This document shows, piece after piece, positions 6,501-62,344 of a stretch of 64,000 nucleotides of DNA (position 1 is the first letter of the stretch; each line of letters opens with the position of its first letter). Location: the NCBI RefSeq assembly GCF_013426205.1, contig NC_089425.1, forward strand, positions 4,402,001 to 4,466,000, read 5' to 3'. The notes beneath the pieces were generated by a model. That model made no database searches. It saw nothing but the letters and a program-made list of their open reading frames with translations, and had not been told where the DNA came from. The DNA is from Metarhizium brunneum (lineage: Eukaryota > Ascomycota > Sordariomycetes > Hypocreales > Clavicipitaceae). A program made the position numbers and the translations under genes.

Positions 6501-9500
6501 CACTTAATCCGAGGCCCGTCTTGGCGCATACCGAAGCCATCCTGGGTGCAGCAATCGAGTCCCCCCCATATCAAAGAAGGAGTAGTGGGGATGGATTTTC
6601 CCATCAAAACAGAGTACACATTTCCAAATCGATGTAAACTCGTCCATGATTGGTGTGATGGCCAGAGCGGGCGGTCGACTTTACGACGACGACGAGGGCT
6701 AGCCTGGTTGCAGCGGCACCAAGCAATGGCTTTGGATGGTCTTGGCCGGGGGATACAATCGAGAAACAGATCAAACGCTTGCCTCTGGATCATTGTTGAA
6801 TAGTCTTAGTATGCCAACGAACAAGTCCATGAAGGCCTCGGCCTCGCTTGTTTCCATCGTCTCTTCCGAGTACCGCAAGACGCGCCGTGCCAACTACACT
6901 CGGCCATGCCGTTAACCAGCATGCACCGCTCTGCAGCAACCCCCCTCCGTACACGGCGCTTCCGAGCTTTCTCAAACCTGCTGAGCCGGGGAGTATTTGG
7001 TCCTCGTCCCCCTGGCTTGGAATGCTCTGAAATTGGAACATGGAGTGGAAGCCTGCGGCACTTGGCCAGGGGTACTGGGCGGCAATGCGGTTGAATGGCG
7101 TTGCTTCAAACGGAATAGTATCAATACCTTGATGGTATGCGTCCTTGAGAAGACTGCCAAAACATTGGTTTGCATCAAGGCGGACTCGAAAAGCAATCAC
7201 ATTCAGAGACGGTCCCACCACCTCTTGCGCGCCTTGGAAAGCAGCATACCGCCCAGAGACTAGATTGCCAAAGGTAATATCACAAGTCTGCGATATTTGG
7301 GACAGGGTAATTGCCCATGCGACTTTGAGCATCACAGGGTAGCTGATGGTTGCGGAATGCTTGAAAGCAAATGCAATAGTGCGCCTTGAGCCCCGAGACA
7401 TGACGGGCCGAGCATTGCTCAATGCTCGTGAGGGCAGAACCCTCGAGTTTCTCTCGCCAAAAGCAATCGGCCTCATCGTTGCACTGCTGGATGGTGTGCT
7501 TGATGGCATTCCTGGCTGACGAGATGAAAACTTGTTCGGAGGATGGGATGGCGCAGCGCAACAGCGGCGCAAGCTTGTTAAACCGCGGGAATCGGCGATG
7601 TGCCAACGTCGATGAAGAACCAGCAGTAATAGGCGCGGCACCGTTTTTGGAACTCGACCAGGAAACAGAGCTGCATGTGCGACGCAGGTATACGTCTTCG
7701 ATTCCAGTCTCCATGGCCAAGGCTGGCGGCATCTCTCTCTCGTTGGCAGCTCCCATGACACCATTCATGTCTTGGTCCCTTGACATGGAGCCATCGCGCG
7801 CCTAGATGTATCCAGGGTTTTTGATAGAGATGACGCTTGCCATGTTTCTCAACGTCTCGGCTCCAAAAATGTCCTGCGCAGTAACCTGTGAGCCCTTGGC
7901 CTCGAGCAAAGAGATGAGCCTGGTGGTTGTGAGGGAGTCGCCGCCTACGGCAAAGAAGTCGTCGTGCAGTTCATATGTAACGCCGTCTTGCCTGTTCAGA
8001 ACCTGCTTCCAAGCGTCTTAAGGACCTCCTCTGCCCTAGTATTCATCTCCATCTTATGACTGCTGCCATCTGCTTCAGTGGTCTGTAGATACTCCATCAT
8101 CTTGGCTGGGGCTTGGGCCTCGGCGGCTGACACGAGGCGTCTTCTGTCCGTCTTGCCGGCCTCATTCAGAGGCCACGAGCGTACGGGTATCCACAACTTG
8201 GGAATCATGTATTGCGGCAAGTTGATTTTGGAGTCTGTGTGCTGTCTTGGATATCGCCTGCTTGAACATGTCTGATGTGTGGGCAAGGAGTGATTCTGGA
8301 GAGGTTGCGTGACAGTCTAGCAGCTCAAGAGAAGCGGCCAAGGTGTTGTTGCCGCCTATGTTGACTTTTGCAACGGCAATATGACGGGCTTCTGAAAATC
8401 AAGGGCAAGATTCAATCGCGTTTTCAAACTCTCCGAGCTTAATCCGCAGTCTGTTGAGCTTGATTTGCCCGTAGTCCTTTCTGCCCACCATCTCCACGTT
8501 GCCGTCAAAATTAAACCGCGCCAGGTCTCCTGTTTTGTACAGGATATTGCCCTTTTCCTTGGCAATCCAATTGAAATGTCTGATGAAGGAAGCATTTGTC
8601 TTCGCCGCGTCGTTGAGATACCCTCTGGCCAGCGTCGGTCCGGAAACAACGAGTTCCCCGACGCAGCCTATCGGCATCAGATGCCTGCAATCCTCTTGGT
8701 CAACAATCCACAAGTAGCCGCCTAGACGCTTTCCCACGTTTCCAACTGGCCTTTCCGGGCTGATGGGCCCGACGGCAAAGCTAATAGCGCTTCTGTTGGG
8801 CCATAACTGTTGACAAATACCTCCAGGGGCGGCTCGCGACAAGCCCACTTGTCTATAAAGGCTCGGCTTGCTATCTCGCCTGCAAGAGTGACCAGTAAAC
8901 CCGGGCATCGCGGCTGGCTCTAACAAGTTGGCAACCGTCGGCGTCAGATCGACAAAGTTGATCTCCATCTTGACAAAAACCTCTTCAAGATGACCTATGC
9001 GGTCCTATTCGGACGGGATGCATACGCAGCCACCATAGGCCAGGACGGCAAAAATATCCAGGACGCTGGCGTCAAGCGTATACGAGCTAAACTGAAGAGC
9101 GCGCGTCTTGTTCCCGCGTCGATGGTGCTGGTACCTCTTGCCGTGCTCCGAGATGCTCAAGCTTGCGGCACGTGTTTTATCATCACACCTTTGGGCTGCC
9201 CGGTGCTGCCCGAAGTAAAAATGACATAGGCTACATCGCTAGGGGTAGCCAGTCGAGCCTCGTGTGGTGTCTGGGCCCAAGTGGGCGTAATGAAAGGAAA
9301 CGGGGACGCAAGGGCTAGAGTGTGTACGGAGAATCTCAAAGAATTGTGCTGGAGCGCGGAGACAATGACGACTTTTGCCTTGACCTCTTGAATGATAAAC
9401 TCTAGGCGGGAGATCGGATGAGACGTATTAAGTAGGATATATCCGGCCCCGGCCTTAAGCACTCCCATTATGGCGACCATTATGGAGGCTGATGTTTCAA

Positions 9501-21815: not shown

Positions 21816-22149
21816 AGTCGAGCATGAGGCTGACGGGAAGACGACCAAGACGTGATAGCCCTAGATTGGTTGCCCAATCAGTTCGCCGTTAATTACACGC
21901 TTGCAAACAAAGAAATTGATGCCGTCCGCGCTTATGAACCAATGTGAAACTGCAGAGCATGTAGTGTCTGTAAGACGTGGCACATTGGCCAACAGTCAAG
22001 CCCCAACCTGCAATTTCTAACCAATTTCCATTTTGCATATAGTCACGCTCTAAATTAAAACTTGTAGCGGTTGTTCCTTCAATCAAGTTGGAGTAGTTTC
22101 CAGTTGTCAAGTGTCTGAGCTCAATAATTGTTGTTGTCGCTCTAAATTT

Positions 22150-22409
22150 GGATAATTATTATAATAAGGGCTATAATTATAAAGCTTAAAATAATATTTA
22201 ATATTTAACTAATAATTTACTTTAATATTAAGGGTTTTTAGTTTTTTTTAAAGCTTTAAAAGGTAAATAATTTTTATTTATATTAAAAGGTAATTAAAAG
22301 GTTATTTTAAGTACTTAAAGCTTTTATTAGATTTTAAGCTTTTATATAATTATTATTATATTTAAAGTATAATTTATATTTTTATAATAATATAATATTT
22401 ATATAATAA
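22150..22409. repeat. Left long terminal repeat
   Basis: Aligns collinearly with 29168-29425 at an offset of about 7017 bp. Anchors are the AAAGCTTAAA block at 22181 and the TATTAGATTTTAAGC block at 22325. Differences are mostly G/A and C/T, as RIP predicts. The outer edge is uncertain by about 10 bp. Confidence 0.85.
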
Positions 22410-25400
22410 ATTTTTTTTTTTTTTAGGTTTATTTTTAAGTTTTTATTTAATTTATAACTTTTTAATTATATAATTTTATTAAATTTAAGTATTAATATTA
22501 TATTAAAAGTTATTTTATATTATTTTTTAAGAAATACTTATAAAATTTCTAAGTTTAATATTTTTTTATTAATTATTTTATTTATTTAATTAAATACTTA
22601 ATATTATTTTTTATTTTTTATAAGTTTATAATTTTTTTAATTTTATAATTTATTTTAATAAATATAACTTTTTATAAAACCTGGTTTAAATTAAGTAGTT
22701 TTTAATTATTAATATAAAAAAGCTTAATAAATAATATATAAAATAAATTATAAATTTTTTTTAAATTTAAAATAATTTTAATTTAATAATAATAATAAAT
22801 ATAACTTTTATAATTTTAAAAGATTTTAATATTTTTTTATTTAGCTTTTTTATTAGTTTTTTAATTCTAATATTTTTAATATTTAATATAATAAAATTAT
22901 TTATTTAATAATTAAATAAACTAGCTTATTTTTTATTAGCTTATTTTTTTATTTTTTAATAATTTTTATTAAGCTATTTTTTTATATTTTTATAAATAAT
23001 TATTATTTAATATATATATAATTTATTTATTAGGTTTTTAGGTATAATTCTTATTTTATTTAGGTTATTAATTAATAAATAATAATTATAATTAATATAA
23101 AAAAAAGTAAAATTAAATAATATTAATATAAAATTATTATAAGTAAATTTAATAATTAATAATAAGTTTTTTTAATTTAATATTTTATAATTTATAAATA
23201 TTTTAAGGTAAATTTTTAATATTTAATTTATTTTTTTTATTTACTTATTTATTTATAAGTAAAATATTATATTTATATAACTTTTAATTTTTATAAGTTT
23301 AAAAAAAAAATTTTAAAAATATATAATAAATTTTAAGTTTTTATTAAAAATAATATTTTTAAGAATTTTATATAATTTTTAATATTATTATATAAAAATT
23401 TATATAAAAAAATTTTTTTTTTTTTAATTTAAATAAAATAAAATATATTATTTTTATAAAAAAATTAATTATAATTTAAATAAAATTATATTTATTAAAT
23501 ATTAATAAATTAATAATAAAATTTATTATTATTAATTATTATAAAATATAATATAATTTTATTAATTATAATAAGCTATAAAAAGTATACTTAAAGTTTT
23601 TATTTTATTAGTATTTTAAGTAGGTTTTAATATAATTTTATATTAAGTTTTAAAGGTTTAATTATTAAAAGCTTTTTATAATTAATTTTATTATTTTATT
23701 TATATTTATATAGCTAATAACTTAAATATTATATTTAGATTATATAATATTAATTTATAAGCTTTTTAGAATTTATAAATACTTTTTTTAATAAAATAAT
23801 TCTTATTTTATTATAATATTTTTTAATAATTTTATTAATACTTTAATATATTTATAATTTTTCTTATTATATTTTAATATTTATTAAATAAATTTTTTAT
23901 ATTAGTTTTAAATTATAAAATTATAAAAATAATTTTTTATTAATAATATTATTAAAAAAAAAAAAGTAAAATACTTATTTTATAAAATTATTATAATTAA
24001 TTAGTTTTTATTTTTTTTTTTTAATTTATATTATAATAATTTAAAAAAAATATTTATTTTCTTATTTTTTTTTATTAAATAATAATTAATAATAAAAAAA
24101 TAATTAATTAATTTTTATATTTATTAGGTTTATTTTTAATTAAAAATTTTAATAATAATAAAATACTTTAAATTTTAATAATTTAAAAAAACTTTTATTT
24201 TATATTTTATATTTTTTAAATAATATTTTTATTTCTTAAAATAATTTATAATTATAAATAGTTTTTTATTATATATTTTATAATTAATTTTTATTAAAAA
24301 AAGCTTTTTAAAATAATAAGCTATAAAATATATTTTTTTATTAGATTTTACTTATAATAATATAGCTTTTAAAATAAAATTTAATATATTAGCTTTAATT
24401 ATTACTTATAAGACTAGGTTAAATTAAATAAAAACTAAAGCTATATAAAAAATAATTTTTAGTTATTTAAATACTTTTTATATTTTTATTATTTATAATT
24501 ATATTTTCTTATTTTTATATTTTATAATATTAATTAATAAATAAGTAATTTTTAAAAAGTTTTTAATAAATTATTTATAAAAATTTATAAAGCTTATAAA
24601 TTTTTAAATATTTTTAAAATTTATTAATATTTTTTATAATTTAATATATTTAACTTTTATTAATAATATTAAAATTCTTATAATTAAAATATTAAACTTT
24701 AAAAATTTAACTTTTATAATTATTTATTTATACTTTTATAATATAATTTTAAGCTTATATTTAATTAATTAATATAATATTTCTTAAATAATAATATTAT
24801 ATTATTTTTTTAATTTTATATAAATAAAAATATTATTTAAATAAATTAAAACTTTTATATTTATTATATTTTAAAAGATTTTATTTATTATTATTTAAAA
24901 AATTAATAATATATTAATAAGTTTAAAAAGTATAATTATATACTTATATAAATTATAATAATAATAAAAAGCTATTTTTTATTTATAATTTTTAATAATT
25001 TATATTAAATTAAACTTTATTTTAAAGTTAATTTTTAAGAATATTTTAGCTTTTTATAATTAGTTTTATAGTTTTTATATTAATAATATAAAATATTTAA
25101 TTAAAATAATTATTTTATTTAAGCTTTAATAATTAATAATAAATTATAAAAGGTTTTTTAGGTTTTTTTTTTTATAAATATTATTAATATATTATAAAAT
25201 ATTTTTAACTTTTTAATTTTATTACTTTTAAGTATTTTATTTAATTAAGCTTATAAGAAATTTAATTTTTTAAGCTTATTATATATAAAAGTTTTTATAA
25301 AAGTAATTTATTATTTATAAGTTTAATTTTATAATTTTATAATTAATATTATAAAAGTTTTAATATAATTTTTTTATTATAAAAAGTATAAATTTCTTAA

Positions 25401-27726
25401 ATTTATTTAATATTTAAGTTATTATAATATTAATAATTATTTAAGCTAATATAATTTACTTTTTTATTATAAATTTTAATAATTCTAAATTATAATAGTT
25501 TTCTTAATAATATTATAATAAAAAATATTTTTTTTTATATTATAATCTTAAAAATTAATTAATTAATAAATTCTTATTTATTAATATAAAAAAATTATAT
25601 TATAATTTATATCTAGCTTATTTATTTTAAATAATAAGTATATAAAATAATTATTAATATATTTTAATATAATAAGTTTAATATAATAATATTTTTTTAT
25701 ATTATTTAAGAAATTATTAAATATATATAAAATTTTTTTATATTAATATTTTCTTAATTAAATATTTATTTTTTAAGTTAAAATTAATAATAATATTAAA
25801 AAATTATTTTTATTATTAAAAAAAACTTAAATTTTAGTTTTTTTTTTATTTATTAATAAAATTATAAATATTATTAATATATTTTTTAAAATAAGTTTTT
25901 TTTAAGGTTTTTTAAGTAATAATTTAAAAATTTAATAAATTTTTATTTTTTTTTTATTTTATATTAATTATTTAATTTTATAAAATAAGTTATAATAACT
26001 TTTTAAAAATTTAAATTAAAATTTAAAAGTTTAATAATTTATAATTTATATATATTTTTATATAAATTATTTATAATTATAATTTTAAGTATTTTTAATA
26101 ATAATTTTTTTTTTTAATTTTATTACTTTTTTTTTTATATTAATAATTTTTAAAATTATTAATAATTTCTTATTATTTATATTTTTTTATATAAAATAAA
26201 TAAATATTTAATAATTATTTTTTTTATATTATTAATATAATATTTTTATTATTTTTTATTTAATTATAATAATTATATTAACTTTTTAAAGTATATTTTT
26301 TTTTTAGTTTTTTTTTATTTTTTAAAAATAAACTTAAATTTTATTAAAAGTATTTATATAAGCTTTTTTAATATTAGCTTAATTTTAAGGGCTTAATTAT
26401 TAAATTAAGCTTTTTTTTTAGCTTTTTTATATTAATTATATATATATTTTTATAAGTTAAATTTACTTTTATAATTATATTAAAAAATATTAATTTATTT
26501 TTTAATAAGCTTTTATATTTTATATAAATAAAATATATAATTTTTTAAGAAATATTTTTATAATATAATTTTTTATATTAATATCTAATTAGCTTATTAA
26601 TTTATTAAAAATAGAAAATTTTATAATATAATAATTTATATTACTTTTATATTTTAAGGTTTAAATTTTTTTTTAATTATAGTTTTTTTTTTTATATTTT
26701 TAAATTATTCTTAAAAAATAATTATATAAAAATCTTATATTTTTATTATTTTTATAATATTTACTTATATTAAATATTATTAATATTATAACTAAGCTTA
26801 TTTTATTAATAAAGTATTAATTTAATTAATTTTTAGTTTATTTAAAATAAAAGTATTTTTATAAAATATTATATATATTTTTATAAAGTATTATTAAAAT
26901 TTAAAGTTTTTTTAAAATATATTATTAAATTATAAAAGCTTTAAAATATTAAAAAAATTTATTATTATTATTTATTTAATAGCTTACTTTTAAGTAAAAT
27001 TAGGTTTTAGGTTTTAAAATAATTAAAAAAGTTTTTTTAATAAGTTATTATTATTTAAGCTAAATAAATTATTAAGGTTTTTAAGGTTTAATATAAATTA
27101 TATTAAAATTTTAAAGTTATAAACTTATTTTTTTATTATTTTATAAAAGTTTTTATTATTAAATAATAATAATTTTTATAAAAAATATATATAAAAATAA
27201 TTTTATATTATTAAAATAGCTTTTTTTATTAATTTATTAAGTATATAAGTTATATTTATTTACTTTTTTTAATATATTTATTTAATTAAGTTTTTAATTA
27301 TAATTTTAATTAAAATATAAAGTTTCTTAAAAATTTATTACTTTTATAAGTTTAATTTTTTTAAAATAATATATTATTAAGTAAAAAAAGCTATAATTTA
27401 CTTATAATAACTAATAATTTATAAGTAATAAATATTAATAAAATTAATATAAAATTATATTTAATTTTTAAGTTTAAACTTTATTATTTTAAGCTTTTTT
27501 TTTAAAATATTAATAATAATTATAATTTAAGCTAAAATATTTTTAAAATATATATAATAATTATAAAACTATTTAATAATAAAATTTTTTATTATTAAAT
27601 TTTATATAAATTAAGCTATTTAAAAGTATATATTTTTAATAAGTTATTTTATTACCTTTTTTATAGCTTATTAAAGTTAAATTAATTATTTTTAATTAAT
27701 ATTAATATTAATATTAATTAAATTAT

Positions 27727-28500
27727 TAAATTATAATAAAAAAATAAAAAAAAGGCTAGTTAATTACCAGGACCTACTAATAATATAATTAATAGCTATA
27801 CCTAGCTAATTAAATAATAATATATAATTAAAAAAATATTATATATATATATTATAATATATTAAATTTATTAGCTTAAAAGGTAATTTATAACCTTATA
27901 TACTAGTAAAAGCTTATAACTTTATATGTTAAAAATATATATAATAATAATAATAATTTATAATTATATAAGTTATACCCTAAAAAACTTAAAGTAATTT
28001 AATATAATATAAATTAATAAAGTCCTGACTTTTATAAAGCTTATTATTTTTCTTATAATTACCTTATTTTACTTTTATATACCTAATTTAAATAAATTAC
28101 TTTATAAATAATATAACTACTTATAGGTTTTTAGCTTTATATTACTCCCTAAAGTATTTATTAATATCAGACTTAGTTAGTAATTAATAATTATAATTAT
28201 AACTAGTATTAAAAAAGGTAATAAGCTTAATATAAGTAAATTACTTATTATAACTTTAAAAATTAAAGCTAATAAACTTAAAAAAATAATAAAAAAGTTA
28301 TTATTATAAAAAATATTAATAAGAAAAAAAATATATTATTAAAAACTAAAAATATTAAAAAGGTTAAAAAACTTAATAAAATAACTAAAAAAGTAAGAAA
28401 AAAAGAAAAAATAAAAGGGAAAATTAAGAAAAATATTATAAAGCTAGTTAATAAAAAGTAGCTTTATATTATAGTTTTCCCTCTTATTATAAAGGGATAT
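27727..28500. repeat. 770-bp repeat unit, copy 1
   Basis: Matches 62971-63726 along its whole length (shared anchors: GGCTAGTTAAT near the start, CCTACTAATAA, TTATACCCTAAAAAACTTA, TAGCTTTATATTATAGTTTTCCC near the end). It keeps more C and G than its surroundings, so it may be a younger insertion nested in the retrotransposon. ATATTAATATTAAT-like sequence flanks both ends. Confidence 0.8.
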
Positions 28501-29167
28501 TAATATTAATAAAATTAATTACTTTTTAATATTTTTTATAAGCTTAAATATAATAATATTAGATTTTATTTAGGTTATATTAATTAATTAATTAAATAAT
28601 TTAAGCTTATAAGTAAAAAGCTTTATAAATAATAATTATTTACTTATTAATATAAACTAAATTAATTAATATATTTTAAGATATATTAAATAATATTAAT
28701 AGCTTTAATATATTTTTTATTATTACTTTAAAGTTAAGTAAATTATAAATTATTTTTTATAATAATTAAAAAATTAAAATTATTATAATAAAACTTTAAA
28801 AAATTATATTATTATTAAAAAAAACTTTTAAAAAAATATTATTATTAAAAAAATTAATTAATTTATTTTTTAAAAATAAATTTTTTTTTTTTAAAAGGTT
28901 TTAATATTTTTTTTAATAATAAAATATTATTAAAATAATAATTTTTAAGATTATTATTAAATATTTATTTATTTAATTTTTAAGTAATATAAAATAAAAT
29001 AATAAAAATAATAAAAATAAAAAACTAAGTTTTATTAAATAATTAATTATTTTTTAATAATTTTAAAAAAATAAAAAAAAAAAATTTTTTAATATAAGCT
29101 TAAAAGAAAATTAAAATAATAATAAAGCTTTTAATATAAATAAAAAAAGCTTTTTTTAAAATAAAAA

Positions 29168-29425
29168 TAAATTATTTATAATAAAAATTATAATTATAAA
29201 GCTTAAAATAATATTTAATATTTAATTAATAATTTATTTTAATATTAAAAATTTTTAGTTTTTTTAAAGCTTTAAAAAATAAATAATTTTTATTTATATT
29301 AAAAAATAATTAAAAAGTTATTTTAAGTATTTAAAGCTTTTATTAGATTTTAAGCTTTTATATAATTATTATTATATTTAAGGTATAGCTTATACCTTTA
29401 TAGTAACGTGATATCTATATAATAA
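29168..29425. repeat. Right long terminal repeat
   Basis: Partner of the left repeat. Its last about 30 bp (29395-29425) keeps C/G where the left copy has T/A, giving a direct view of the transitions. The sequence returns abruptly to normal base composition after 29425. Confidence 0.85.
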
Positions 29426-30090
29426 TTATTAATCCGCGCATTGAGAAGGGCAGACAGGATCGAGGTAAGAGTGTGGAAAGGCGAGCAACAGTCTCGTGAA
29501 TCTATTCGCATGGAGCCGAGCTTGAGAATAACAATTACAACCTTCTCTGCACCGACTGTTATATTATGAAGCGGCATATCAGTCAACTGTTTGCGGCAGA
29601 GTCGACGACAGCTGTAATCTTGCACCTTTACAACTATGTTAGTCGCAAAGCATTCAACAAAGACCTGTGCGTTACAAAAGAATAATAAATAAAAGAGGCT
29701 CTGTGGAATGGACCAGATCGCATTCTCAAGACTCAGGAAGACGTACAGCCTAATTGCTTCATAAGAAAGCAAACACCAATATATTATAATGTAGCGCATT
29801 CGAGCATGTCTTTATTATTTGGGATGGATTTAGCAGACCTGTTAGGACCTGTCAGCCTGTATTCCCACAATACGAGACCACTGGAAATACGGCAAGCTGT
29901 TGGCCGTGACTGCTTCCAAAGGCGCGCGTAAAGGTTCGTCTCTCATAATTTGCGACAACATCTGGTGCCCCTTGTTGTCGGGTCCTCGAACCAAATTTTC
30001 GCAGCGGCAAAAAGGACAGCGGGTGACTATGCAGCCCACCATTTGGGGTACAGTGATCTCCATTCGGTCGTAGGATCCATGAACTTCTCC
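29426..30090. other. Spacer with an unassigned minus-strand frame
   Basis: A 133-codon minus frame (29799-29398) runs into the retrotransposon LTR. It has no recognisable domain and its end lies in the LTR, so I do not call it a gene. Otherwise nothing is seen. Confidence 0.35.
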
Positions 30091-30930
30091 TTATACAGAG
30101 ACCACCTTCTCCGGATCAAAACCAGCAGCCTGGTCAAAGTAGTACCCCCTCTGGTTGGTAATTAGCCTCAAGGGCTCGACGCCATTGCCTCGGTCAAGCG
30201 AAAAATCGCAGTTGTAATGGGTGTGCCCGAATGCCCACGCCTTGACTTTGCTGCTCTTGAAGCAAGGCTGCTCCGACATATCAGTAGCGAAAGCACTGGC
30301 GATGGAGCTTCCGGCGTGCTTTGGGTCCATGGCACGAGGATCCAGCGAAGGGCTCCAGTGCGAAAGGATGATGATGCGAACATTGGAGCGGTCCAGGTCA
30401 GCGACCTGGCGGTTGAGCCAGGCGACATCCCGTTGATGCATGTCGTTGTGGGTGTCTGTGGTCCAGTCGGTTGTCTGGTAGAAGTCGTTGATGCCCATGC
30501 CAACAGCCAGGTGTTTATCGGGAAAGATGTGAGAGAAAAGGCTGCAGCCGAGAACGACGACGTTTGTACCCGGTAGGCGGTAGGCGGCTCGGTCGAGGAG
30601 GATGAATTCCCCAAGAGACGCGTCGTCACGGGTTTCCTTCTCAAAGATGCGCAGAAGTTGAATGGTGTCGTCCCAGTTGGAGCGGTACGCCTCGTGATTG
30701 CCGGGGACAAACAGCACAGCCTTGAACTGCTTCAGCTGTCGAGCTAGAAATGCAAGGCAGTCGGTGTTGTGTGCTTCGATGTAGCCACTGTCTCCAAGGA
30801 GAGCCAAGTATGGTGCCGTGGGAGTAATGTCGAATAAGTCGTAAGTCATGGGAGACTCTAGATGTATGTCGGAGATGATCTGGACCGCCATGACGGATGA
30901 AGATGGCGCAGTCTGGGTGCTCTGACGCAT
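30091..30930 (-). CDS. Calcineurin-like metallophosphoesterase
   Basis: Intronless, 279 residues from the ATG at 30930 (good context, CAAGATGC); an ATG at 30891 gives 266. The five metallophosphoesterase blocks are in order: DIHLE (Asp-x-His), LLGDSGYIE (Gly-Asp), PGNHEAYRSNW (Gly-Asn-His-Glu), a HWSPS histidine, and GHTHYNCDF (Gly-His-x-His). These residues bind a di-metal centre that hydrolyses phosphoesters. There is no signal peptide, so it is probably cytosolic; the substrate is unknown. It is the first intact gene beyond the retrotransposon and lies next to the UstYa locus, with no evidence that it takes part in it. Confidence 0.9.
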   Translation of the reverse strand: MRQSTQTAPSSSVMAVQIISDIHLESPMTYDLFDITPTAPYLALLGDSGYIEAHNTDCLAFLARQLKQFKAVLFVPGNHEAYRSNWDDTIQLLRIFEKETRDDASLGEFILLDRAAYRLPGTNVVVLGCSLFSHIFPDKHLAVGMGINDFYQTTDWTTDTHNDMHQRDVAWLNRQVADLDRSNVRIIILSHWSPSLDPRAMDPKHAGSSIASAFATDMSEQPCFKSSKVKAWAFGHTHYNCDFSLDRGNGVEPLRLITNQRGYYFDQAAGFDPEKVVSV

Positions 30931-30999
30931 CTTGTAAAAAGAAAAAGGCACCGGTTTGTGTTTGGAGTATGTGCATAGTGTCAACTGGTGTGTCATCAC

Positions 31000-31682: not shown

Positions 31683-32804
31683 CTACAGATCTTCTATGGT
31701 ATAATTCCACCCGGACGGAATGTCATCCGCCACAACAGCCTCGGGATCGGGGCCCCAGCTCGTATAGTCGACAATAGCTCCATTCTCAACATGAAGCCTC
31801 CTGCTACCGAGGTTTACGGTTCGCTGAGATGCCCAATTCTGAATCTTGTCGAAATTTCGGCACATGTGAACCACTTCAAGCTCCGTCTTCGTAATCTTCT
31901 TGCTCTCCAGCCACTTGTACGTGATCAAACTGGTGTCCGAGTGGCACATGATGGATTGGCGAAGCGACTCTACAGAATGGTCTATCGTTTGATTCCATCA
32001 GTATGCGGGACGTGGAGTTTTCCAGGCGGCCAGTTTCCTTCTCACCTATGTGCAGCCATTGAATGTATTTGACTGTGCCGTCAGGGTTTGTCAACGATGT
32101 GTTGTACCGCCGGGGATAGAAGGCCATTCGAATCTGATTCTGCTTCCAGTGTAAGCTTTACTTCCAATGTCACCCAGCATCTCTGACCGAGCACCTACCA
32201 GATAGTGTAGCTGGTGGAATACGTCTAGGCCAACCATGAGGTCGTTCAACATGTATAAAAGTGCCGACTATTGAAGAGCTTAGGGCGGCTGCATCAAGAC
32301 GATGGGAGACCCTCTTACCGCCATAGAGCTCTTGCCATAATCGGTCGGTCTCGTCCGTCGGAAAGCCCTGGTATGGAGAGCTGGCGTGACTATTTCCCAG
32401 CTTGAAGAGGACGGGGACATATTCCACCGCATCTTCCGCTGGACCTTGAAGGAGGAGTTAGTCTAGGGATTTAGAAGAACGTCCGAATTGCAGCCGAATC
32501 AAAGGAAAATGGCCAGTACTTACTATAACTACCTCCTTGGTCATCGGGACTCGCCTTGCATCGGGCTGTGAATTTACCCACAATCACCAGGACAAGTGAG
32601 ACAAGAAGTATGGCATTGAGAGCCCAAGAGACAAGAACAGAATGGTTTAAAACTGCGCTTGACTCTATGGTACCACGAGCCAGAACGGTAGAAAAGAAGC
32701 GAAGAGGGCAATAGACTTTGGCTGTCATGTGCGCTGAGTCCATCATCGTCTTCGTCGCCGCCCATCTCGGCGACTGGATCTTCTTTGAAGTGGCCTAGCG
32801 ACAT
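31683..32804 (-). pseudogene. UstYa-family (DUF3328) oxidase-like gene, decaying
   Basis: Exons can be traced at about 32804..32524, 32444..32319, 32267..32199, 32142..32046 and 31981..31683. They show the UstYa plan: an N-terminal tail, one transmembrane helix (SWALNAILLVSLVLVIVGK), PAEDAVEY, the SPYQGFP and WQELY region, two HxxHC sites and a C-terminal domain. Problems are visible. The natural N-terminus from 32804 is one base out of frame with the helix, although a later ATG at 32746 avoids this. Exons 2 and 3 do not join in phase with a canonical donor. Both HxxHC cysteines are replaced, as HQLHY and HIDHS. The C-terminal 100 residues look intact. Most likely a relic; an expressed but catalytically altered paralogue is the alternative. 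It is divergent to the intact UstYa gene at 33289. Confidence 0.75.
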
Positions 32805-33288
32805 CGTGATAGCAGGCGAATATCGTTCTATGGGCGGATCGCCTGAACTTGGCGTGAAACAACTGAGAGTGTATATCGGAATTCGATTCTCGGCCAACCT
32901 CGAAGAAAGCTGCCCAATCCATTCTGCAACCCTCGCCTGGGCCCAGCGTCCTATCAAAGGGCCAGCAGGTCAATCGAAGCCAAGCCAACGCCAACTTGCA
33001 TTTGCAAGGATTGCCGTTATGACTGATCCCCGGAACAACTCGGCATTTGTGACCGTCCATTTTGGTTCGATATGCTGTACCACAAGTACTGCATATTCAT
33101 CTGTTGGTCTTCACTCCAGATGCGCCGAGACAAGTCGGAGTGTCTGTCCAAGTGACAGTCGCAAGAGTCTGCCATCGGAAGCCCTCCTTCGGGTTTCCGG
33201 CCGGTTTCGGGCGTTATCATCCCATCATCTATGATGCTGCGCTGTTGAGCTTACACGACCTCTTTCTTTCATTCTCCAAGGTCACAAG
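32805..33288. promoter_or_regulatory. Shared divergent promoter region of the two UstYa genes
   Basis: 484 bp between the two divergent start codons, with no reading frame of note. A bidirectional promoter is inferred from geometry only. A CCGGCCGG-containing stretch lies near 33196. Confidence 0.4.
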
Positions 33289-34289
33289 ATGAGCTTTTTG
33301 CCAAAGTCGATTATGGCTCCCATCTCAAGCTACGCATACACGCCCATCCCCGTCAACTTGGACCATGGAAAGTCTGAGCCATATCATTTACAGGAAGGGT
33401 TGAACGAGAATAGCACTTCAGATCTTGAACTAAGAGACCGACGACGGCAACTTTTCCTGGTCGTTTTGACCTCGCTGTCTTTACTATGTCTCATGATCTT
33501 GAGCATGGCTCTGGGGCACCTTACTGTCACCAACTCCGACTGCGGCAGACAGCTTTCCACTTGGTGTAAGTTGCATGACAGGCAGAGCATGGAATAGGAG
33601 CGGTTAACTTGTTGCTAGCACCGGCATTCGAAGCTGTCGAGTATTACCAAACGACATTTGAGGGAGAATTTCTGGCTCCGTCAGTCTGGCGAGGCCCGCC
33701 CTTTCCAGAATTGGATGAAGCATGGAACCGCATCTCCATACGAGGCACGGGGAGCTTGAGAATCGCAAAATACGATCTTTCACGGCTCAACAAATCAGCC
33801 GACGCGGAAATTACTGCCGGCTTCGGAGACGGTACGAATGATGTACAAGTTTTGCTGGAGGTCTTCCATCAGCTCCACTGTCTGGTGTGTCTGTCGTCAG
33901 ATTTTCCCCCTTCAAGCTCAATGCTTACAAGAGTCATGTTACAGAATGAAATCCGCAAGCACACCTGGCCTGAATACTACAAGTTTGACGCGCCGCCCAA
34001 GGTAGAGCGAGCGCACCTCGGTATGCCCATCACCATCTTCAAGTCAAGCCTTGATGCACCTAAGCTAACAGCTATGTGTTGATAACTTTCACAAGACCAC
34101 TGTATTGAAATGCTGCGGATAAATTTAATGTGTACGGCAGACATGACCCCAATCACAGCCAAACAAGTTTCATGGAAGAACGGAGACGCTGCCCCGGATT
34201 TCAGCACTCTGCACACATGTCGGGACTTTTCCAAGATCCTAAAGCATGTCGAGGACCACGCGGATCTTTGGGGATTCTGGGCCTCGTAA
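33289..34289 (+). CDS. UstYa-family (DUF3328) oxidase, candidate RiPP-cyclising enzyme
   Basis: Exons 33289..33565, 33619..33884, 33945..34020 and 34096..34289 give 270 residues; donors are gtaagt, gtgtgt and gtatgc, and phases agree. The N-terminus is cytosolic-type, then one helix (LFLVVLTSLSLLCLMILSMA, about residues 57-77) and a lumenal domain opening SPAFEAVEYY. Both family signatures are intact: HQLHC at 176-180 and HLDHC at 205-209, the latter followed by IEMLR and ADMTPIT. UstYa-type proteins catalyse oxidative macrocyclisation of ribosomal peptides in ustiloxin, phomopsin, cyclochlorotine and asperipin biosynthesis. The family also occurs outside RiPP loci. Here a repeat-bearing small secreted protein lies 1.3 kb downstream with no gene between, which favours a RiPP role. 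Confidence 0.9.
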
Positions 34290-34741
34290 GAGTTGGTGAT
34301 GAGACCAAGAGACACAAAACGTAGTGGCTTCCGCGATCAAAGCTGCCGCCATGTTAGATGCGATACGGCATCGCAGATAGCAGTTGCTCGCGGAAAGTCA
34401 CCAACTATACGCAGGCCGAAGTTGACACAATCTAGATAGTTCAATTGAGCCACTTTTTCCACTACTGATCGGTCCATACTCATAGCTAGTCACTTGGCTC
34501 GCTGCCATATCTTGGTAATCATTCCTAGGACGAGGATGATACACGCTTACCGCGTCACGAGTGCTGCTTCATGTGTACCGTGCTCTGTAAAACTAGAAAC
34601 TTCCCACAGACTCAACCAACAAGACGAAGTGGCAAATGTGCAGCAACCATGCGTTGCATTTGATTGTCTGGCAGTCTCGAAACCGGCAATGATGACTTGA
34701 CCAACCGCATATCCTTTTCCAGCCCCCAACATTGATCTGAT

Positions 34742-34768
34742 GGTCCGAACTTGTTTATGGTTCGGACC
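34742..34768. promoter_or_regulatory. Perfect 9-bp inverted repeat (GGTCCGAAC-N9-GTTCGGACC)
   Basis: Both arms match exactly, putting CCG and CGG 15 bp apart in opposite orientation, the arrangement bound by dimeric Zn2Cys6 regulators. It lies between the UstYa gene and the candidate precursor, about 690 bp upstream of the latter's TATA box. A terminator-type hairpin is an alternative but is unlikely this far from the UstYa stop codon. Confidence 0.5.
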
Positions 34769-34866
34769 GCTCGGCCCCCGAATTTCTTGATTCGCTGTTA
34801 AGGACGGAAGCTCTTGGCGGTGTGTTGGTCTGTGAGCATCGTAACTCAAGCCTACGGCCAATATTA

Positions 34867-35500
34867 TGCAGCACCTTTGGAACCGGGTCTCGACTGGAGG
34901 GTGCTTTGACTATATGCACGTTCGGGAAGCATCAGTTCCGTCAAGTTCCATTTCGGAGCAAAGCCAACATGCAGAAGGGTACTTCCGTTCATGTGGGAAT
35001 GGAATGACGTGGAAATGGCCAACTACCAAGGCAGAGGTGTTCACAGTGTATCATCACGCAAACGCACCTAATAGATTATGCATATTTAAAACTGAGTCCA
35101 GATTGGCAGTTGAATTGACGGCACATGTAGGACAGAACTGTCATACAATTCCGTTTAGCCATCAGGGGATAACAGGCATCGGGAGGTTGTCGTTGAAACA
35201 ACGGAGACAGAACGATGCAAAAAAATACACCCAACTATTGGCAGCTATGATCACTCCGCATATCGCGCAAGAACAGACCGAATAGCGTATGCAGCTCCGT
35301 AACGAGTCTAGATTGGTAGGCGCTTGACTATGTGCGTGTTTGGATGCAACGATATGCTTTCCTCGATATGGAGACGGGAAAAAATGGAAAGATGCCAACA
35401 TTTGAACTGTCAAGGCCGCCATGACCATGCCATACCATCGCGGCCCTTTGTCATCTATAAATCCAGCAACCTGCACCTCTTCCTAGCTGCTCTACTCAGT
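34867..35500 (+). repeat. Diverged 211-bp tandem repeat, three copies
   Basis: Copies begin near 34867, 35079 and 35290, each opening with ATGCA and sharing a block like GAGTC.AGATTGG..G....TTGAC. The ends of the first two units also match (CGCAA...CA...ATAG before the next ATGCA). Identity is about 60-75% in the best blocks. The array ends at the promoter of the candidate precursor gene. Confidence 0.55.
35456..35462 (+). promoter_or_regulatory. TATA box of the candidate RiPP precursor
   Basis: TATAAAT lies 124 bp upstream of the start codon at 35580, followed by a C/T-rich leader. Confidence 0.6.
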
Positions 35501-35579
35501 CTCCTCACAACCATACAAGCCGTCGAGCCACCCTGAAAAAGAATACAACCACACCAGCCAAGAACCTGAACACAGCAAG

Positions 35580-36007
35580 ATGAAGTTCTCCGTCGCTCTC
35601 TTCGCCCTTGCCAGCTACCTTGCATCTGCCGCACCGACTGGCCCATCCCCTGGTGAGAAAGACCTCAGCGTTCTTGGTCCTTGGTTTTAGCTAACAGTAA
35701 CAAAGATGCTTCTGGTCTCAGCAAAGGAGGTTTGCCAGCGGACTCGATCAAGGCTCGCATGAGCGATGATGCTGTCAAGTCGGCCCGGGTAAGGAGGCTA
35801 TCAGCCACACATTTTCGTTTTGATCCAATCAAAGCAATGAAAACATGGCCGTCACTGACACTCTCTGCTTAGCACTCTGCGCGCCTGAACCCGGACGTGA
35901 TTGAGGCCCCTTACTACCTTACTGGCGAGCTTCAGGAACGTTCGGAGGCTCTGAATCCCGATGTAATTGCGGCGCCTTTATACCTTGTTGGCGAGCTCCA
36001 GGAGTAG
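35580..36007 (+). CDS. Secreted repeat pre-protein, candidate dikaritin-like RiPP precursor
   Basis: Exons 35580..35652, 35706..35788 and 35873..36007 give 96 residues; donors are gtgaga and gtaagg, and acceptors follow CTAAC-type branch sites. Residues 1-18 are a signal peptide (MKFSVALFALASYLASAA). Residues 19-56 form a polar pro-region ending SARHSAR. The last exon holds two repeats: LNPDVIEAPYYLTGELQE (57-74) and LNPDVIAAPLYLVGELQE (79-96), joined by RSEA. Flanks are constant; the three differing positions sit within or next to the APxYLxG centre, which keeps one Tyr. A signal peptide followed by repeats with conserved borders and a variable Tyr-containing core is the layout of UstA-type precursors. 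It differs in having only two repeats and no Lys-Arg Kex2 sites. Alternatives are a small secreted repeat protein or a pheromone-like precursor. The gene is confident; the RiPP role is inference. Confidence 0.8.
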
Positions 36008-37293
36008 ACAGCCGGGCAGCTCGGTCGTCGGGTTGAAGTTACTGCGCTGGACATGCCTAGTTATGCTCAAGTTACTCACGCATAGCAAACAGAGTATGCT
36101 TTCGCCAACAAGTACTCCTAATTGATTATCTTTCTATAATTCGCTCTCTTTTTACATGGGAAATCAAGAGTCTACAATATATGTTCCTGTAGTGAGTCAA
36201 TTAATTAGATTGTGACATGTCCGGCTGCTGTAACTGGGCCTTTGTTTCTGTATAATGGCCGCAGGTGAGACGAATCACCTTGAGAAAATCGTATACTGGT
36301 TCATGTTGAGGCACATTGTATCATATTTATATCAGGTATGAGGGCCACACTATCATCGCAATGCGGCCTTGTCGTGTTTGACCTTTTACGCATGTTGCCG
36401 GTCGTATCGTCCGGCTGTATACAGCACGTTGATATGCCTGGACATCTACTCCCAAGAAGAGGGTACAGCGAGTGATAAGGGCACAGGTGATGCAGGTGTG
36501 ATGGTGCGAATTTTCCTGCAATAGCGAATCCGCAATTCTCCCACGACAAGTGTCATCTTTCTTTGGAAAAGGACATCATGTCCTCTATAAATAGGAGACT
36601 TGCAGCCCCCTCAAACAGCTCAACGAGATTTGGTCAACGACAGATAATATCTGGTCATGTCAGGCTTTGTGGGCTGGTAAGACGCGTCGTTGGACGATCT
36701 GCGACGAACGATGCATTGAATAATAATTATTAAAAGACAGTGATATGATATTGCAGGGCACTAGCATGTTCTAAAGAAATTTGGCTAGGTCGTCGGCAGC
36801 AAAGCCACTGATAATGGCAGTAGCATCTCAATTATCACCAAACCCAAGCAGAACATGCTTCTCTTCGATAATAGAGCACGGTTATTTGGAGAGGCTAGCG
36901 TATCACCAGGTCCTCAACGTAATCGTGACTTGCAGCCAACCCACCGTGGTACATGTCTCCTGTAGCGGTTTATCAGTGGCTAGATTCAGCTCTGGTATTC
37001 GTAGCCGTCAACATTCAGAGTGTGTGGTGGTGCAGGTCCGATACGGACACTTGAGAGAGCTCAGGTTGCTGGAATAGCTGTGGAATTTGTTTAAACGAGT
37101 GTCTAAGATTTACTTGAAGCATGCATGCCAGTTTGTTGTGCCGTATAGCAATTTGCAGGGATGTTGAATCCTGTTCTTGCTCACCAACTTCTCTCCATCA
37201 TTCGCCTAGATAACGAGCCCATCGCTACCAGTATACCCCATAATCCAATAGCCTGACCACAAAGCAGCCATCAAGAAGCCCTTGACTGGTTCC
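36008..37293. other. Intergenic, nothing recognised
   Basis: Spacer after the candidate precursor. Short frames on both strands lack motifs; no tyrosinase, peptidase or transporter gene is present here. Confidence 0.45.
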
Positions 37294-41200: not shown

Positions 41201-41549
41201 GCACTGTTTCACGCAGACATGACCATAGAGCAGCACCGAGGTTCTTATACATTGAATGATGAGTTGTGAATCGTGGATCGTATGATATATATCTATATAT
41301 ATGGGTCAAGACAACCATATAACCAACTGCCTTCAATGTCTACTCAGCACCCTCTGGCCCCTTCCAAGCAATACCCAAGTGATTCTTTACCAAATTCACA
41401 ATACTAAAAACTATTACAGTCTGTCAGACTACGTTTCAAAACCCATCAAGCTCAGTTAGGCCTGGTGGTCTGCGTCTGGAGATTTTAAGCGACAAGATTC
41501 AGGAACAGCGCAAAAGTCCATCCTTGACTCTTTTTTCAACAACGAAATC
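38261..41549. other. 3.3-kb gene-poor stretch
   Basis: No intact gene recognised. Open frames are under 125 codons, lack motifs and overlap on both strands. No tRNA or other RNA gene was noticed. Confidence 0.5.
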
Positions 41550-44132
41550 ATGTCTCGAGAAGCCGCAAGCACTCCGCGGCCGGGAGTGAGCCCTATGCAC
41601 ATTACGGAGCACCATGATGAAGAGCAGAAAATTTGGTGCCAAGTTGATGTGCAACGCCAAAACCGGTACTATGGTAAACTGGTTGTCTCGAGCCTGCACA
41701 CCGATGGTGGTGAGCTGGTGCGAGCCAACCAGTTTCTCAGCGTTGTGTTTCTGTCGCCGACGGATGTTGCGGCAAGGGACTTTTCGTCTTCCACGGCTGT
41801 GAAAATCACGCCGCAGATGATCAACGAGCAGATTGACGCCAACACGGTCCGCGTAACCGCACGACTACAACTCGTAGAAGCATACGTATTCCAAGACCAC
41901 GAAATGTTTGAATTTGGCGTCTATGACGACGTGGGCCAAAATCCTGATCTGTACAAAGAATCGTTAGTGCTGGGAGCCGATCGAACACCCAGCGGGTGCG
42001 TTATCATCCATTGCGAGCCCGCCCCGGACGAGCGCCTCGCAAACTGCATGCAAACGATATGTTTCTGCGAGGGCAAGCGAGTACAGACAGTCTCGGTGCC
42101 TCTGGGCCAAGAAACGCAATGCGAGATAGCTGTCGGCTCGTACACCGACGTAAAGGCTCTCAAGCTCACGGCCGCGGATGACACGGCGGTCGGGCAGCCT
42201 CAGGCCTCGACTCATGCTCTGAGAGTCGAGGACGGTGGAATGAAACACGTCGACATACGCTACGACCACGTTGAGCACTTCAGTACCATAGATGTGACGG
42301 TTGGGAACATTAGGCCCCTTGAGAGGGAAAGATTCCATATTCGAATCCAGAGGAACGGCGCTGAAGTCGCCAGCAACTGGAGCCCGTGCGACCATAAGAC
42401 TCGGTTCTCGGAACTGCCGCAGGAGGGCGACGTGTCCGTCAGTGTCGATGCGACGACGGTAAACAATTACGAATTCTCCTTCAAGCCCCGCGATTTGAAG
42501 CTGTCCTCTAGGTTGGACTCGGCCTCGTTCCCCCAAGCCGATGCTGTAACCGGCATTGACACCACTGGCTTCATAAGCCTACCTATTGTGGTCAAGACTA
42601 GTATTGTGGAATCCGGTCTGACTTTGTTTGTGCGATTGCGTTCCGAGACGTTGATCTACACGCAAACAGTCCCGGTCAGGGACGGCCCTGTGTCGCTCGC
42701 CGTCAAAGTACAACCAGGGCAGTATACAGTCGAGGCCCCGAGCTTCGTCTGCAGCGGCATCGTCTACGTCGTCACCGCGGAAGCCTCGCTCACAGTCCTG
42801 GATTGCGGCTCGACCAAGCTGGAGGTGCGGGTGCAGCGCGGCGCCAATCTCAAAGTCTGCGGCTTCCCAGACGTGTTGGGTTTCGGCGGCTACGCCGACC
42901 TGGTCGACGGCAACAAGGACGACTTTGTCGAGGCGAAAGCGTCGTCCGTGTTTGCATATGCCGGCCTTGACCACGATGGCGATCCCCTCCAGCGCCTGAC
43001 AGAGGCCGAGGAGCGGCGCGCCACGTGGGAAACCATTCAGCTTGCACGGGCTGTGGAACGAGAGCTCGGCCATGGGAAGCCGGTTCTGCCCGTCATGGTC
43101 TCTTATACCTGCAACTTGCAAGGGTTCCAGGTGCAAGACCGGCTGCGAAACCACGAGGACTGGCTCGCCAACAGCTTCGCAAACCTGATCCTGTCACTGC
43201 AGATAACCAACAGTACCATGGACCCCCGGCATCCCGTGCCGGGTGGCTACATTGTGAATCCAGACTTTGTCAGCACCTGCCAGAGGGAGGGCCTCACAGC
43301 CAAGTTCACGATGCCGGTGCGCGGTCCGCTTCAATCCGCCGTCGACTATTACAAGGTCGCTGCCGAAATTCCCGACAGCATCTCCGAGAACCTTGGCGGC
43401 TATGTTGCCGCCGTCAATTGGCTCTTCCGGACGGTCTCGCCGGCTGTGCCGTTCGGTTGGCATGTCCATCTCGAGGGAGCCGGTGGTCCGGAATGGATCT
43501 ATCGAGATGATGACGATGCGGCTTCCATGGCACAGAAGACGGGCGCCTACGCCGCCTCGCTTGGTATCTTCGCTCACGCCGACTTTGTAGCCGTTGGCCG
43601 CCACCCAGGCGACGACTTCACCGTGCAGAGCTACGGCGTAGGCTATTGCTACGGCCCGCGCGAGTGGCAGCGCTTCTTTGCGTTTTGCGGCGCCCTCAGT
43701 CTCAACCAGCAGGTACCAGTCCTTCCATGGCAGGTATCGTTGAGCCGGACGCCGCTCGTCGACGACGGAGTCGCTCAAGACTTTGATTTCCAGCACTGGG
43801 GGACCGGGGGCAGCTATATTCTGGGCGACGCGGCCGTGGGCTCGAGCTACCACAACGTTCACCCCAGCATCCTCCAGCTCAAGTTCACCCTTCCGTACAT
43901 GGGGGAAGACGGGAGACGCATCTTCATTCGTGCAGAGCCTTTTGATCTGACCGAGCCAGCCGTGAAGGACTTGCTTCTCTGCGGCATCTTCACAGTCCTC
44001 GTGGGCGGACCTTCTACGACTGGCATCATCGCGGCCAGCTTCGGCAACCGGGGGCCGTGGGTGCGGAAGAAGCTGAAGGCGTACGGAGAGAATCCGATTC
44101 GCTTGACAACTATCGGCACGGGAGTGAACTAA
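41550..44132 (+). CDS. Large intronless protein, possible glycosidase-like C-terminal half
   Basis: One uninterrupted 860-residue frame, noticeably richer in G+C than its flanks. It has no signal peptide or transmembrane helix. The first 430 residues look like consecutive beta-sandwich-type segments. From about residue 440 the character changes: FGGYADL, MVSYTCNLQGFQ, SFANLILSLQI, FGWHVHLEGAGGPEWIY, ADFVAVGRHPGDDF, YCYGPREWQRFFAFCG, PWQVSLSRTP, HWGTGGSYILGD. Alternating strand/helix order with conserved Trp, Glu, Asp and His suggests a TIM-barrel hydrolase fold, but no catalytic residue can be assigned and I cannot name the family. Lack of introns in a gene this long, among intron-bearing neighbours, raises the possibility of horizontal acquisition. 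Start context ATCATGT is acceptable. Confidence 0.85.
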   Translation: MSREAASTPRPGVSPMHITEHHDEEQKIWCQVDVQRQNRYYGKLVVSSLHTDGGELVRANQFLSVVFLSPTDVAARDFSSSTAVKITPQMINEQIDANTVRVTARLQLVEAYVFQDHEMFEFGVYDDVGQNPDLYKESLVLGADRTPSGCVIIHCEPAPDERLANCMQTICFCEGKRVQTVSVPLGQETQCEIAVGSYTDVKALKLTAADDTAVGQPQASTHALRVEDGGMKHVDIRYDHVEHFSTIDVTVGNIRPLERERFHIRIQRNGAEVASNWSPCDHKTRFSELPQEGDVSVSVDATTVNNYEFSFKPRDLKLSSRLDSASFPQADAVTGIDTTGFISLPIVVKTSIVESGLTLFVRLRSETLIYTQTVPVRDGPVSLAVKVQPGQYTVEAPSFVCSGIVYVVTAEASLTVLDCGSTKLEVRVQRGANLKVCGFPDVLGFGGYADLVDGNKDDFVEAKASSVFAYAGLDHDGDPLQRLTEAEERRATWETIQLARAVERELGHGKPVLPVMVSYTCNLQGFQVQDRLRNHEDWLANSFANLILSLQITNSTMDPRHPVPGGYIVNPDFVSTCQREGLTAKFTMPVRGPLQSAVDYYKVAAEIPDSISENLGGYVAAVNWLFRTVSPAVPFGWHVHLEGAGGPEWIYRDDDDAASMAQKTGAYAASLGIFAHADFVAVGRHPGDDFTVQSYGVGYCYGPREWQRFFAFCGALSLNQQVPVLPWQVSLSRTPLVDDGVAQDFDFQHWGTGGSYILGDAAVGSSYHNVHPSILQLKFTLPYMGEDGRRIFIRAEPFDLTEPAVKDLLLCGIFTVLVGGPSTTGIIAASFGNRGPWVRKKLKAYGENPIRLTTIGTGVN

Positions 44133-48377: not shown

Positions 48378-48385
48378 TATATAAT
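48378..48385 (+). promoter_or_regulatory. TATA box of the 48502 gene
   Basis: TATATAAT, about 120 bp upstream of the start codon. Confidence 0.5.
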
Positions 48386-48501
48386 CTAGTATTCAGTGCG
48401 GTTTCCGCAAGTGTTTGATATCGAATCACTCGCGCTCGCTACAAGTTTATTTCATATTCCTTTTTTGGTTTACTAATTTTACATCTAATAACGTATCAAC
48501 T

Positions 48502-62247: not shown

Positions 62248-62344
62248 ATCCCCTCTAAAAGAGGTAAAACCGCTAATATAAATTTATTAGGTAGTTTTAC
62301 TCTTAATATTATTAGTTTTATTAGGCTTTTTTATAGCTAATATA
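62248..62344 (+). repeat. Direct repeat, copy 1 (about 95 bp)
   Basis: Starts with CCCTCTAAAAGAGGTAAAAC and matches 63906-64000 almost base for base apart from transitions. Spacing is about 1.66 kb. Confidence 0.8.

What the first reader, a model, noticed from the sequence alone, without database searches (positions are those of the whole stretch)
31683..36007. Candidate undescribed dikaritin-like RiPP locus: UstYa pair plus repeat-bearing secreted precursor
Seen: an intact UstYa-family gene with both HxxHC motifs, a divergent decaying paralogue, and 1.3 kb downstream a 96-residue signal-peptide protein ending in two 18-residue repeats (LNPDVIEAPYYLTGELQE and LNPDVIAAPLYLVGELQE). Known: UstYa proteins cyclise Tyr-containing cores of secreted repeat precursors (ustiloxin UstA, phomopsin, asperipin, epichloecyclin, victorin). 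Inference: APYYLTG-like and APLYLVG-like cores would be released and oxidatively cyclised. Unlike known dikaritin precursors there are only two repeats and no dibasic Kex2 sites, and no peptidase, tyrosinase or methyltransferase gene lies beside it.
Basis: partly seen in the sequence, partly recalled or inferred. Interest (0 to 1): 0.88.

Follow-up and report, generated by a model that had tools for sequence, protein, structure and literature searches.

The report
Cyclic-peptide gene pair in Metarhizium
An insect-infecting fungus carries, side by side, a gene for a UstYa-family enzyme and a gene for a small protein with two closely similar tyrosine-bearing repeats; the small protein is predicted to be secreted, cut up and likely turned into a cyclic peptide, and published searches that rely on standard cutting sites would likely miss it.

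Summary
The window is Metarhizium brunneum. An intact UstYa-family gene (33289-34289 +, both HxxHC motifs) lies 1.3 kb upstream of an intron-bearing gene (35580-36007 +) for a 96-residue, Cys-free protein with a signal-peptide-like start and two 18-residue repeats. The repeats exceed 5000 shuffles, and 8 of their 12 nucleotide differences fall at third codon positions. The divergent UstYa copy (31.7-32.7 kb, -) has lost the Cys of both motifs. Homologues of the small protein were found only in four other Metarhizium species, with 2-3 repeats; in M. acridum precursor and UstYa carry consecutive locus tags. All Tyr beyond the signal region lie in the repeats (P-[YFL]-Y-L). Repeats meet at a single Arg (E-R|S), not at a dibasic Kex2 site, though two relatives have RR|S before repeat 1. 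Four of 12 other UstYa loci in this genome also carry a precursor-like repeat gene; one (C1:9.444 Mb) again has two repeats and a single-Arg junction. Best reading: a dikaritin-like RiPP locus with atypical processing. Cutting, cyclisation and product are untested. New variant of a known kind.

The parts
33289..34289 (+). UstYa-family gene A, four exons (33289-33565, 33619-33884, 33945-34020, 34096-34289); HQLHC at 33867-33881; HLDHC at 34014-34020 joined to 34096-34103
   Evidence: Gene model; PF11807 1.6e-50; P0005 100% identity over 97% of query; motif H and C invariant in the 38 rows
35580..36007 (+). Putative precursor gene, three exons (35580-35652, 35706-35788, 35873-36007), 96 aa, signal-peptide-like start
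   Evidence: Gene model; homologues P0001-P0004; hydropathy
35885..35938 (+). Repeat 1, LNPDVIEAPYYLTGELQE
   Evidence: 66-base spacing
35951..36004 (+). Repeat 2, LNPDVIAAPLYLVGELQE
35936..35944 (+). Single-Arg junction E-R-S between the repeats, proposed cutting site (inferred)
   Evidence: sequence; the equivalent place before repeat 1 is R-R-S in M. majus and M. acridum
35449..35462 (+). TATA-like stretch TGTCATCTATAAAT about 120 b before the precursor ATG; a near copy lies at 36579-36592
   Evidence: role not tested
31683..32746 (-). Divergent UstYa-family paralogue B, likely decayed: Cys lost in both motifs (HQLHY, HIDHS), HMM positions 103-122 not matched
   Evidence: PF11807 pieces at 31821-32243 and 32290-32466; raw frames; junction listing

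Best explanation
The pair is likely a minimal RiPP locus in which the 96-residue repeat protein (35580-36007) is predicted to be secreted and cut at its single-arginine repeat boundaries, while the intact UstYa-family protein (33289-34289) would oxidise the tyrosine of each P-x-Y-L core to give a cyclic peptide. Steps: (1) shown: gene pair, repeats, presence of both in other Metarhizium species; (2) predicted: a signal peptide sends the precursor into the secretory path, where UstYa A (long helix at residues 35-71 of the P0005 model, likely transmembrane) would sit; (3) inferred: a Kex2-like or other protease cuts after R in E-R|S (R-R|S before repeat 1 in two relatives), giving units of about 22 residues, by majority S-A-G-L-N-P-D-V-I-x-x-P-Y-Y-L-x-x-E-L-Q-E-R; (4) inferred: conserved LNPDVI and ELQE serve as recognition flanks and UstYa A cross-links within P-[YFL]-Y-L; (5) unknown: trimming enzyme, exact core, cross-link and biological role.
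For: Intact UstYa with both HxxHC. Consecutive locus tags in M. acridum, precursor J3459_022396 and UstYa J3459_022397; in M. anisopliae both proteins are listed with a longest contig of 1,185,143 b, consistent with one contig. Repeats held by purifying selection. In the 5 proteins (one per species) no Cys, and every Tyr beyond residue 22 lies in a repeat. Repeat number varies 2-3, and neighbouring copies match in M. anisopliae and M. guizhouense, as in repeat precursors; in the other three species the copies differ. In this genome 4 of 12 other loci with over-cut-off UstYa matches carry a tandem-repeat frame behind a signal-peptide-like exon, judged by eye (L012, L014, L017, L019), against 0 of 5 control stretches of 10 kb. 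L019 looks like a textbook dikaritin locus (EDYFIGADKR repeats, UstYa, tyrosinase). L017 is an unrelated two-repeat precursor with NKR|S and YQR|S junctions, which puts KR and QR at equivalent places. Asperipin-2a shows that one UstYa homologue can suffice, with no tyrosinase or peptidase in the cluster (PMC6514808 passages; PMC12048977 section 23).
Against: No dibasic site between repeats in any of the 5 proteins. Repeat centre as conserved as flanks. Synteny in close relatives is weak evidence, since any two neighbours may stay together. The homologue lists overlap in 3 species only (brunneum by the window itself, acridum, anisopliae); humberi is listed for UstYa alone, guizhouense and majus for the precursor alone (the database is clustered at 90% and shows one name per cluster, so absences are not firm). 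No precursor homologue outside Metarhizium, although UstYa A has relatives at 47-61% identity in Echria, Podospora, Apiosordaria and Xylaria. Only 5 control stretches. 2 of the 12 other UstYa loci gave repeat hits that do not look like secreted precursors (L016, L024) and 6 gave none; L012 has a stop inside its repeat region. The UstYa beside L017 is only 29% identical to A. No expression or mass data. The precursor model is uninformative (pLDDT 41, 4 sequences).
Confidence: 0.7

Rival explanations
1. The small protein is a secreted repeat protein released as linear peptides (signal or surface peptides, as KEPs can be), and UstYa A does not act on it.
For: Only 22% of KEP genes lie near a DUF3328 gene (PMC7329392, abstract and passages), so repeat secreted proteins without UstYa chemistry are common; the repeat centre is conserved.
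Against: Tyr beyond the signal region only in repeats and invariant at one site; intact UstYa next door in at least two species; the KEP definition itself is not met (no dibasic sites between repeats, two repeats).
Confidence: 0.15
2. UstYa A belongs to another pathway, such as that of the broken NRPS about 20 kb upstream (UstYa-family proteins also act on NRPS products in cyclochlorotine biosynthesis, recalled), and its place beside the repeat gene is accidental.
For: NRPS pieces at 6790-12003 (-); the database name 'Cyclochlorotine biosynthesis protein O' for P0005, probably an automatic label.
Against: The NRPS pieces lie in broken frames and are parted from the locus by a 7.3-kb block of 6.8% GC; UstYa A is intact although the NRPS seems not to be; the repeat gene is the nearest gene seen downstream.
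Confidence: 0.08
3. A dying dikaritin-like locus: UstYa B was the partner enzyme, has decayed, and the remaining pair no longer makes the product.
For: B lost both motif Cys; M. brunneum has 2 repeats against 3 in M. guizhouense, M. majus and M. acridum, and L replaces Y in its repeat 2.
Against: Repeats show low pN/pS; UstYa A and the precursor have open frames with usable splice sites.
Confidence: 0.15

Closest known systems
Asperipin-2a locus (aprA, aprY, aprT, aprR; Aspergillus flavus)
   Same: One UstYa homologue, Tyr-rich core (FYYTGY), no tyrosinase or peptidase among its four genes (PMC6514808 passages)
   Different: Its precursor has Kex2 sites and more repeats (recalled); no transporter or reductase was recognised here among the open frames scanned
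Ustiloxin / phomopsin dikaritins; in this genome the L019 locus (EDYFIGADKR)
   Same: Signal peptide, tandem cores with Tyr, acidic residues in the flanks, UstYa neighbour; Y-x-[IL] spacing (YYL) in 11 of 13 repeat copies
   Different: KR between repeats and a tyrosinase there; neither here
KEPs (Kex2-processed repeat proteins)
   Same: Secreted (predicted here), tandem repeats
   Different: KEPs need at least 3 repeats between KR/KK/RK/RR (PMC7329392 section 13; minimum of three also in PMC6339444 passages); this has two, joined at a single Arg
G000:C1 locus L017 (9444174-9444498 +, with UstYa 9442758-9443356 -)
   Same: Two repeats of about 22 residues, R|S junctions, UstYa next door, same genome
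   Different: Unrelated repeat sequence, Tyr near the repeat end, one junction is KR, UstYa only 29% identical to A

Membership tests
Dikaritin (UstYa/DUF3328-defined RiPP) | DUF3328/UstYa protein with two HxxHC motifs | tested here: met
   UstYa A; criterion from PMC12048977 section 23
Dikaritin (UstYa/DUF3328-defined RiPP) | Secreted precursor with repeated core motifs | tested here: inconclusive
   Two repeats confirmed; signal peptide by eye and hydropathy only
Dikaritin (UstYa/DUF3328-defined RiPP) | Precursor is a KEP (definition used in PMC10512285, passages) | tested here: not met
   No dibasic pair in the protein
Dikaritin (UstYa/DUF3328-defined RiPP) | Tyrosinase, methyltransferase, and transporter or peptidase in the cluster (Ding's original definition, via PMC12048977 section 23) | tested here: not met
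   Nearest tyrosinase and S41 matches on C4 about 223 and 263 kb away; no Pfam match to such families in the open frames scanned between 30 and 46 kb. Transporters and methyltransferases were not searched genome-wide. Known dikaritins lack some of these
Dikaritin (UstYa/DUF3328-defined RiPP) | Product is an oxidatively modified, cyclic peptide | not testable with these tools
   needs LC-MS and gene deletion
KEP | At least 3 repeats between dibasic Kex2 sites | tested here: not met
   2 repeats here, 3 in three relatives, with no dibasic site between repeats in any
UstYa protein family (PF11807) | PF11807 above cut-off over most of its length | tested here: met
   172.5 bits against cut-off 25, profile 6-220 of 220

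The most novel reading that the evidence does not exclude
Fungal UstYa-linked RiPPs include a class whose precursors are cut at a single arginine (R|S) and carry only two or three repeats; it arose at least twice in Metarhizium (this locus and C1:9.444 Mb) and is invisible to genome mining that demands Kex2 sites, so the count of fungal cyclic peptides is too low.
Probability: 0.4. Interest if true: 0.7.

Novelty: new variant of a known kind. Interest (0 to 1): 0.5.

Why it matters
A 2022 review counts only five reported dikaritins (PMC10512285, passages). The two large surveys seen here counted only precursors with three or more repeats between dibasic sites (PMC7329392 section 13; PMC6339444 passages). 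A UstYa-paired precursor with two repeats and a single-Arg junction, found in five species of a genus of insect-pathogenic fungi, gives a concrete, deletable gene pair to test whether UstYa chemistry extends beyond Kex2-cut precursors. It may be unannotated in M. brunneum itself: none of the 4 homologues listed bears that name, though members hidden in the 90% clusters cannot be seen.

Tried and rejected
Searched for precursor homologues outside Metarhizium with one sequence (9 candidates scored) and with a five-row alignment (7994 candidates scored, the list being capped): the same four proteins. Looked for solved relatives of UstYa by sequence (0 hits) and by fold (58 matches at E <= 10, none at E <= 0.001): none. 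Folded UstYa A (mean pLDDT 76.6, pTM 0.64) and the precursor family (pLDDT 41; too few sequences to conclude disorder). The first splicing script used a start one base off and its frames are void; one search replaced it. Tandem Repeats Finder does not report the repeat; the repeat finder does. Considered a chance repeat (rejected); a mis-spliced artefact (rejected: the four database homologues have the same reading; the 17 extra residues of M. majus P0002 look like a retained first intron); a close tie to the L017 UstYa (rejected, 29% identity). No paper on the AT-rich blocks of M. brunneum was found in one listing.
Full report
Identity of the window. The UstYa-family search of the window's genome places the window at G000:C4:4402001-4466000, in a genome of 7 contigs and 37.77 Mb. 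UstYa A matches at 100% identity, over 97% of the query, a protein named from Metarhizium brunneum whose longest contig is 4,632,031 b (P0005), the length of C4. The species is therefore taken as M. brunneum.

The genes. UstYa A has four exons and reads 270 residues; the database protein starts at its second Met. It hits PF11807 with 172.5 bits over profile positions 6-220. HQLHC and HLDHC are present; in an alignment of 38 of the 67 homologues found (short or partial ones, among others, were left out) the H and C of both motifs are invariant. The small gene starts 1290 b downstream on the same strand, has two introns and encodes MKFSVALFALASYLASAAP... with both repeats in the last exon. Its most hydrophobic stretch is residues 5-15, it has no Cys, and its Tyr beyond residue 22 (66, 67, 89) lie in the repeats. 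No Pfam family matches at E 0.01.

The repeats are real. The self-alignment scores 78 against at most 44 in 5000 shuffles; differences by codon position are 1, 3 and 8; 7 of 10 changed codons are synonymous; pS 0.53 and pN 0.12, Fisher p 0.004 on rounded counts from one pair of 18-codon copies. Tandem Repeats Finder misses them, so they are kept alike as protein rather than being recent DNA copies.

Relatives. Two database searches returned the same four proteins, all from Metarhizium: guizhouense MGU_07797, majus MAJ_09654, acridum J3459_022396 (also J3459_017956) and anisopliae VCV18_010927. Guizhouense, majus and acridum have three repeats, brunneum and anisopliae two; the anisopliae protein ends just after a junction and may be cut short by annotation. 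Across the 13 copies L, D, V, P, Y, L, L and Q (positions 5, 8, 9, 13, 15, 16, 20, 21 of the table) are invariant; position 14 is Y in 11, F in 1 and L in 1; the most variable sites inside the repeat are the two after P-x-Y-L. Before repeat 1 acridum and majus read RR|S, brunneum and guizhouense RH|S, anisopliae GH|S; all eight later repeats start with ER followed by S (7) or A (1). Dibasic pairs occur in the pro-region of guizhouense, majus and acridum, and none lies between repeats in any of the five. UstYa A homologues were listed for brunneum, acridum, humberi and anisopliae, then for Echria, Podospora, Apiosordaria, Xylaria and Colletotrichum at 45-61% identity over half or more of the query. 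In acridum the UstYa is J3459_022397, next to the precursor's J3459_022396.

Paralogue B. PF11807 finds two pieces on the minus strand. The first motif reads HQLHY and the second HIDHS (raw frames). HMM positions 103-122 are not matched. Of three frame-compatible junctions between the pieces one has no stop, with a GTCTCC donor. It is likely decayed; this is not proven. The search with UstYa A as query does not list B, so B is a distant paralogue.

Neighbours. The nearest recognised gene upstream is a metallophosphoesterase (30091-30996 -); downstream, the four open frames scanned up to 46 kb gave only two below-cut-off matches. Peptidase S41 and tyrosinase matches nearest on C4 lie about 263 and 223 kb away. 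A trypsin piece, a below-cut-off methyltransferase match and an HRXXH peptidase lie in the window 14 kb or more off.

The rest of the genome as a yardstick. Over-cut-off UstYa matches fall, by my grouping, in 13 loci counting this one (which calls its counts lower bounds). The 12 others were fetched. A repeat scan of stop-to-stop frames of 30-200 residues at score 70 or more gave hits in 6 of 12: L012, L014, L017 and L019 lie behind a signal-peptide-like exon by eye (only L017 was joined), with a stop inside the repeat region of L012; L016 and L024 do not look like secreted precursors; 6 loci gave none; 5 control stretches of 10 kb gave none. In the window, with the AT-rich 21.8-29.9 kb left out, the same scan gave this precursor and two hits in the region of one long acidic-repeat ORF at 49.6-50.5 kb. 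With so few controls this is a yardstick, not a test. L019 carries EDYFIGADKR repeats with UstYa and tyrosinase, the ustiloxin/phomopsin type that surveys report in Metarhizium (PMC7329392 and PMC6339444, passages). L017 is the closest in plan: two repeats, NKR|SHF and YQR|SNF.

Mechanism and standing. UstYa homologues are needed for cyclisation in ustiloxin and asperipin-2a and, in phomopsin, for cyclisation and desaturation (PMC6514808 and PMC10512285, passages). By analogy UstYa A would act on the P-x-Y-L core. Cutting at single Arg is inferred from the repeat register, from RR|S in two relatives and from the QR|S and KR|S pair of L017. The protein fails the KEP definition (PMC7329392 section 13), and so the dikaritin definition that builds on KEPs; the locus meets the enzyme-based one. 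It is therefore described as dikaritin-like, not filed as a dikaritin.

Print. The listings showed no paper on this protein in the held open-access library. I read passages or single sections of PMC7329392, PMC6339444, PMC7099791, PMC12048977, PMC6514808 and PMC10512285, none whole. Nagano 2016 was not held and supplementary tables were not read; PMC6339444 says that 'almost all' of Nagano's precursors have Kex2 sites, so exceptions may already be listed there.

Noticed in passing
window 22101-29450 and 60901-63950: Extremely AT-rich blocks, 6.8% and 14.9% GC with almost no CpG (4 and 5), on either side of the gene island with the UstYa locus; possibly RIP-mutated or centromere-like DNA.
   Followed up: partly
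window 6790-12003 (-): NRPS pieces (three Condensation matches, one AMP-binding) in several short frames; looks like a decayed NRPS gene.
   Followed up: no
L017 6175-6499 (G000:C1:9444174-9444498 +): A second two-repeat, signal-peptide-like precursor beside a UstYa gene, with NKR|S and YQR|S junctions and unrelated repeats.
   Followed up: partly
L019 5844-6089 (-): EDYFIGADKR repeat precursor with UstYa and tyrosinase nearby: typical ustiloxin/phomopsin-type locus.
   Followed up: partly
L014 5192-5455 (+) and L012 7690-7989 (+): KR-separated repeat frames with Trp-bearing cores (GSFIWDWA; GWSYIKARDEKR) among several UstYa matches near one end of C3; L012 has a stop in its repeat region.
   Followed up: partly
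window 48385-51126 (+): 914-residue open frame with 55-residue acidic repeats and no Pfam match.
   Followed up: no
window 41460-44132 (+): 890-residue open frame without Pfam match.
   Followed up: no
window 35449-35462 and 36579-36592: TATA-like elements alike in 13 of 14 bases, 1130 b apart, the second without an obvious gene behind it.
   Followed up: no
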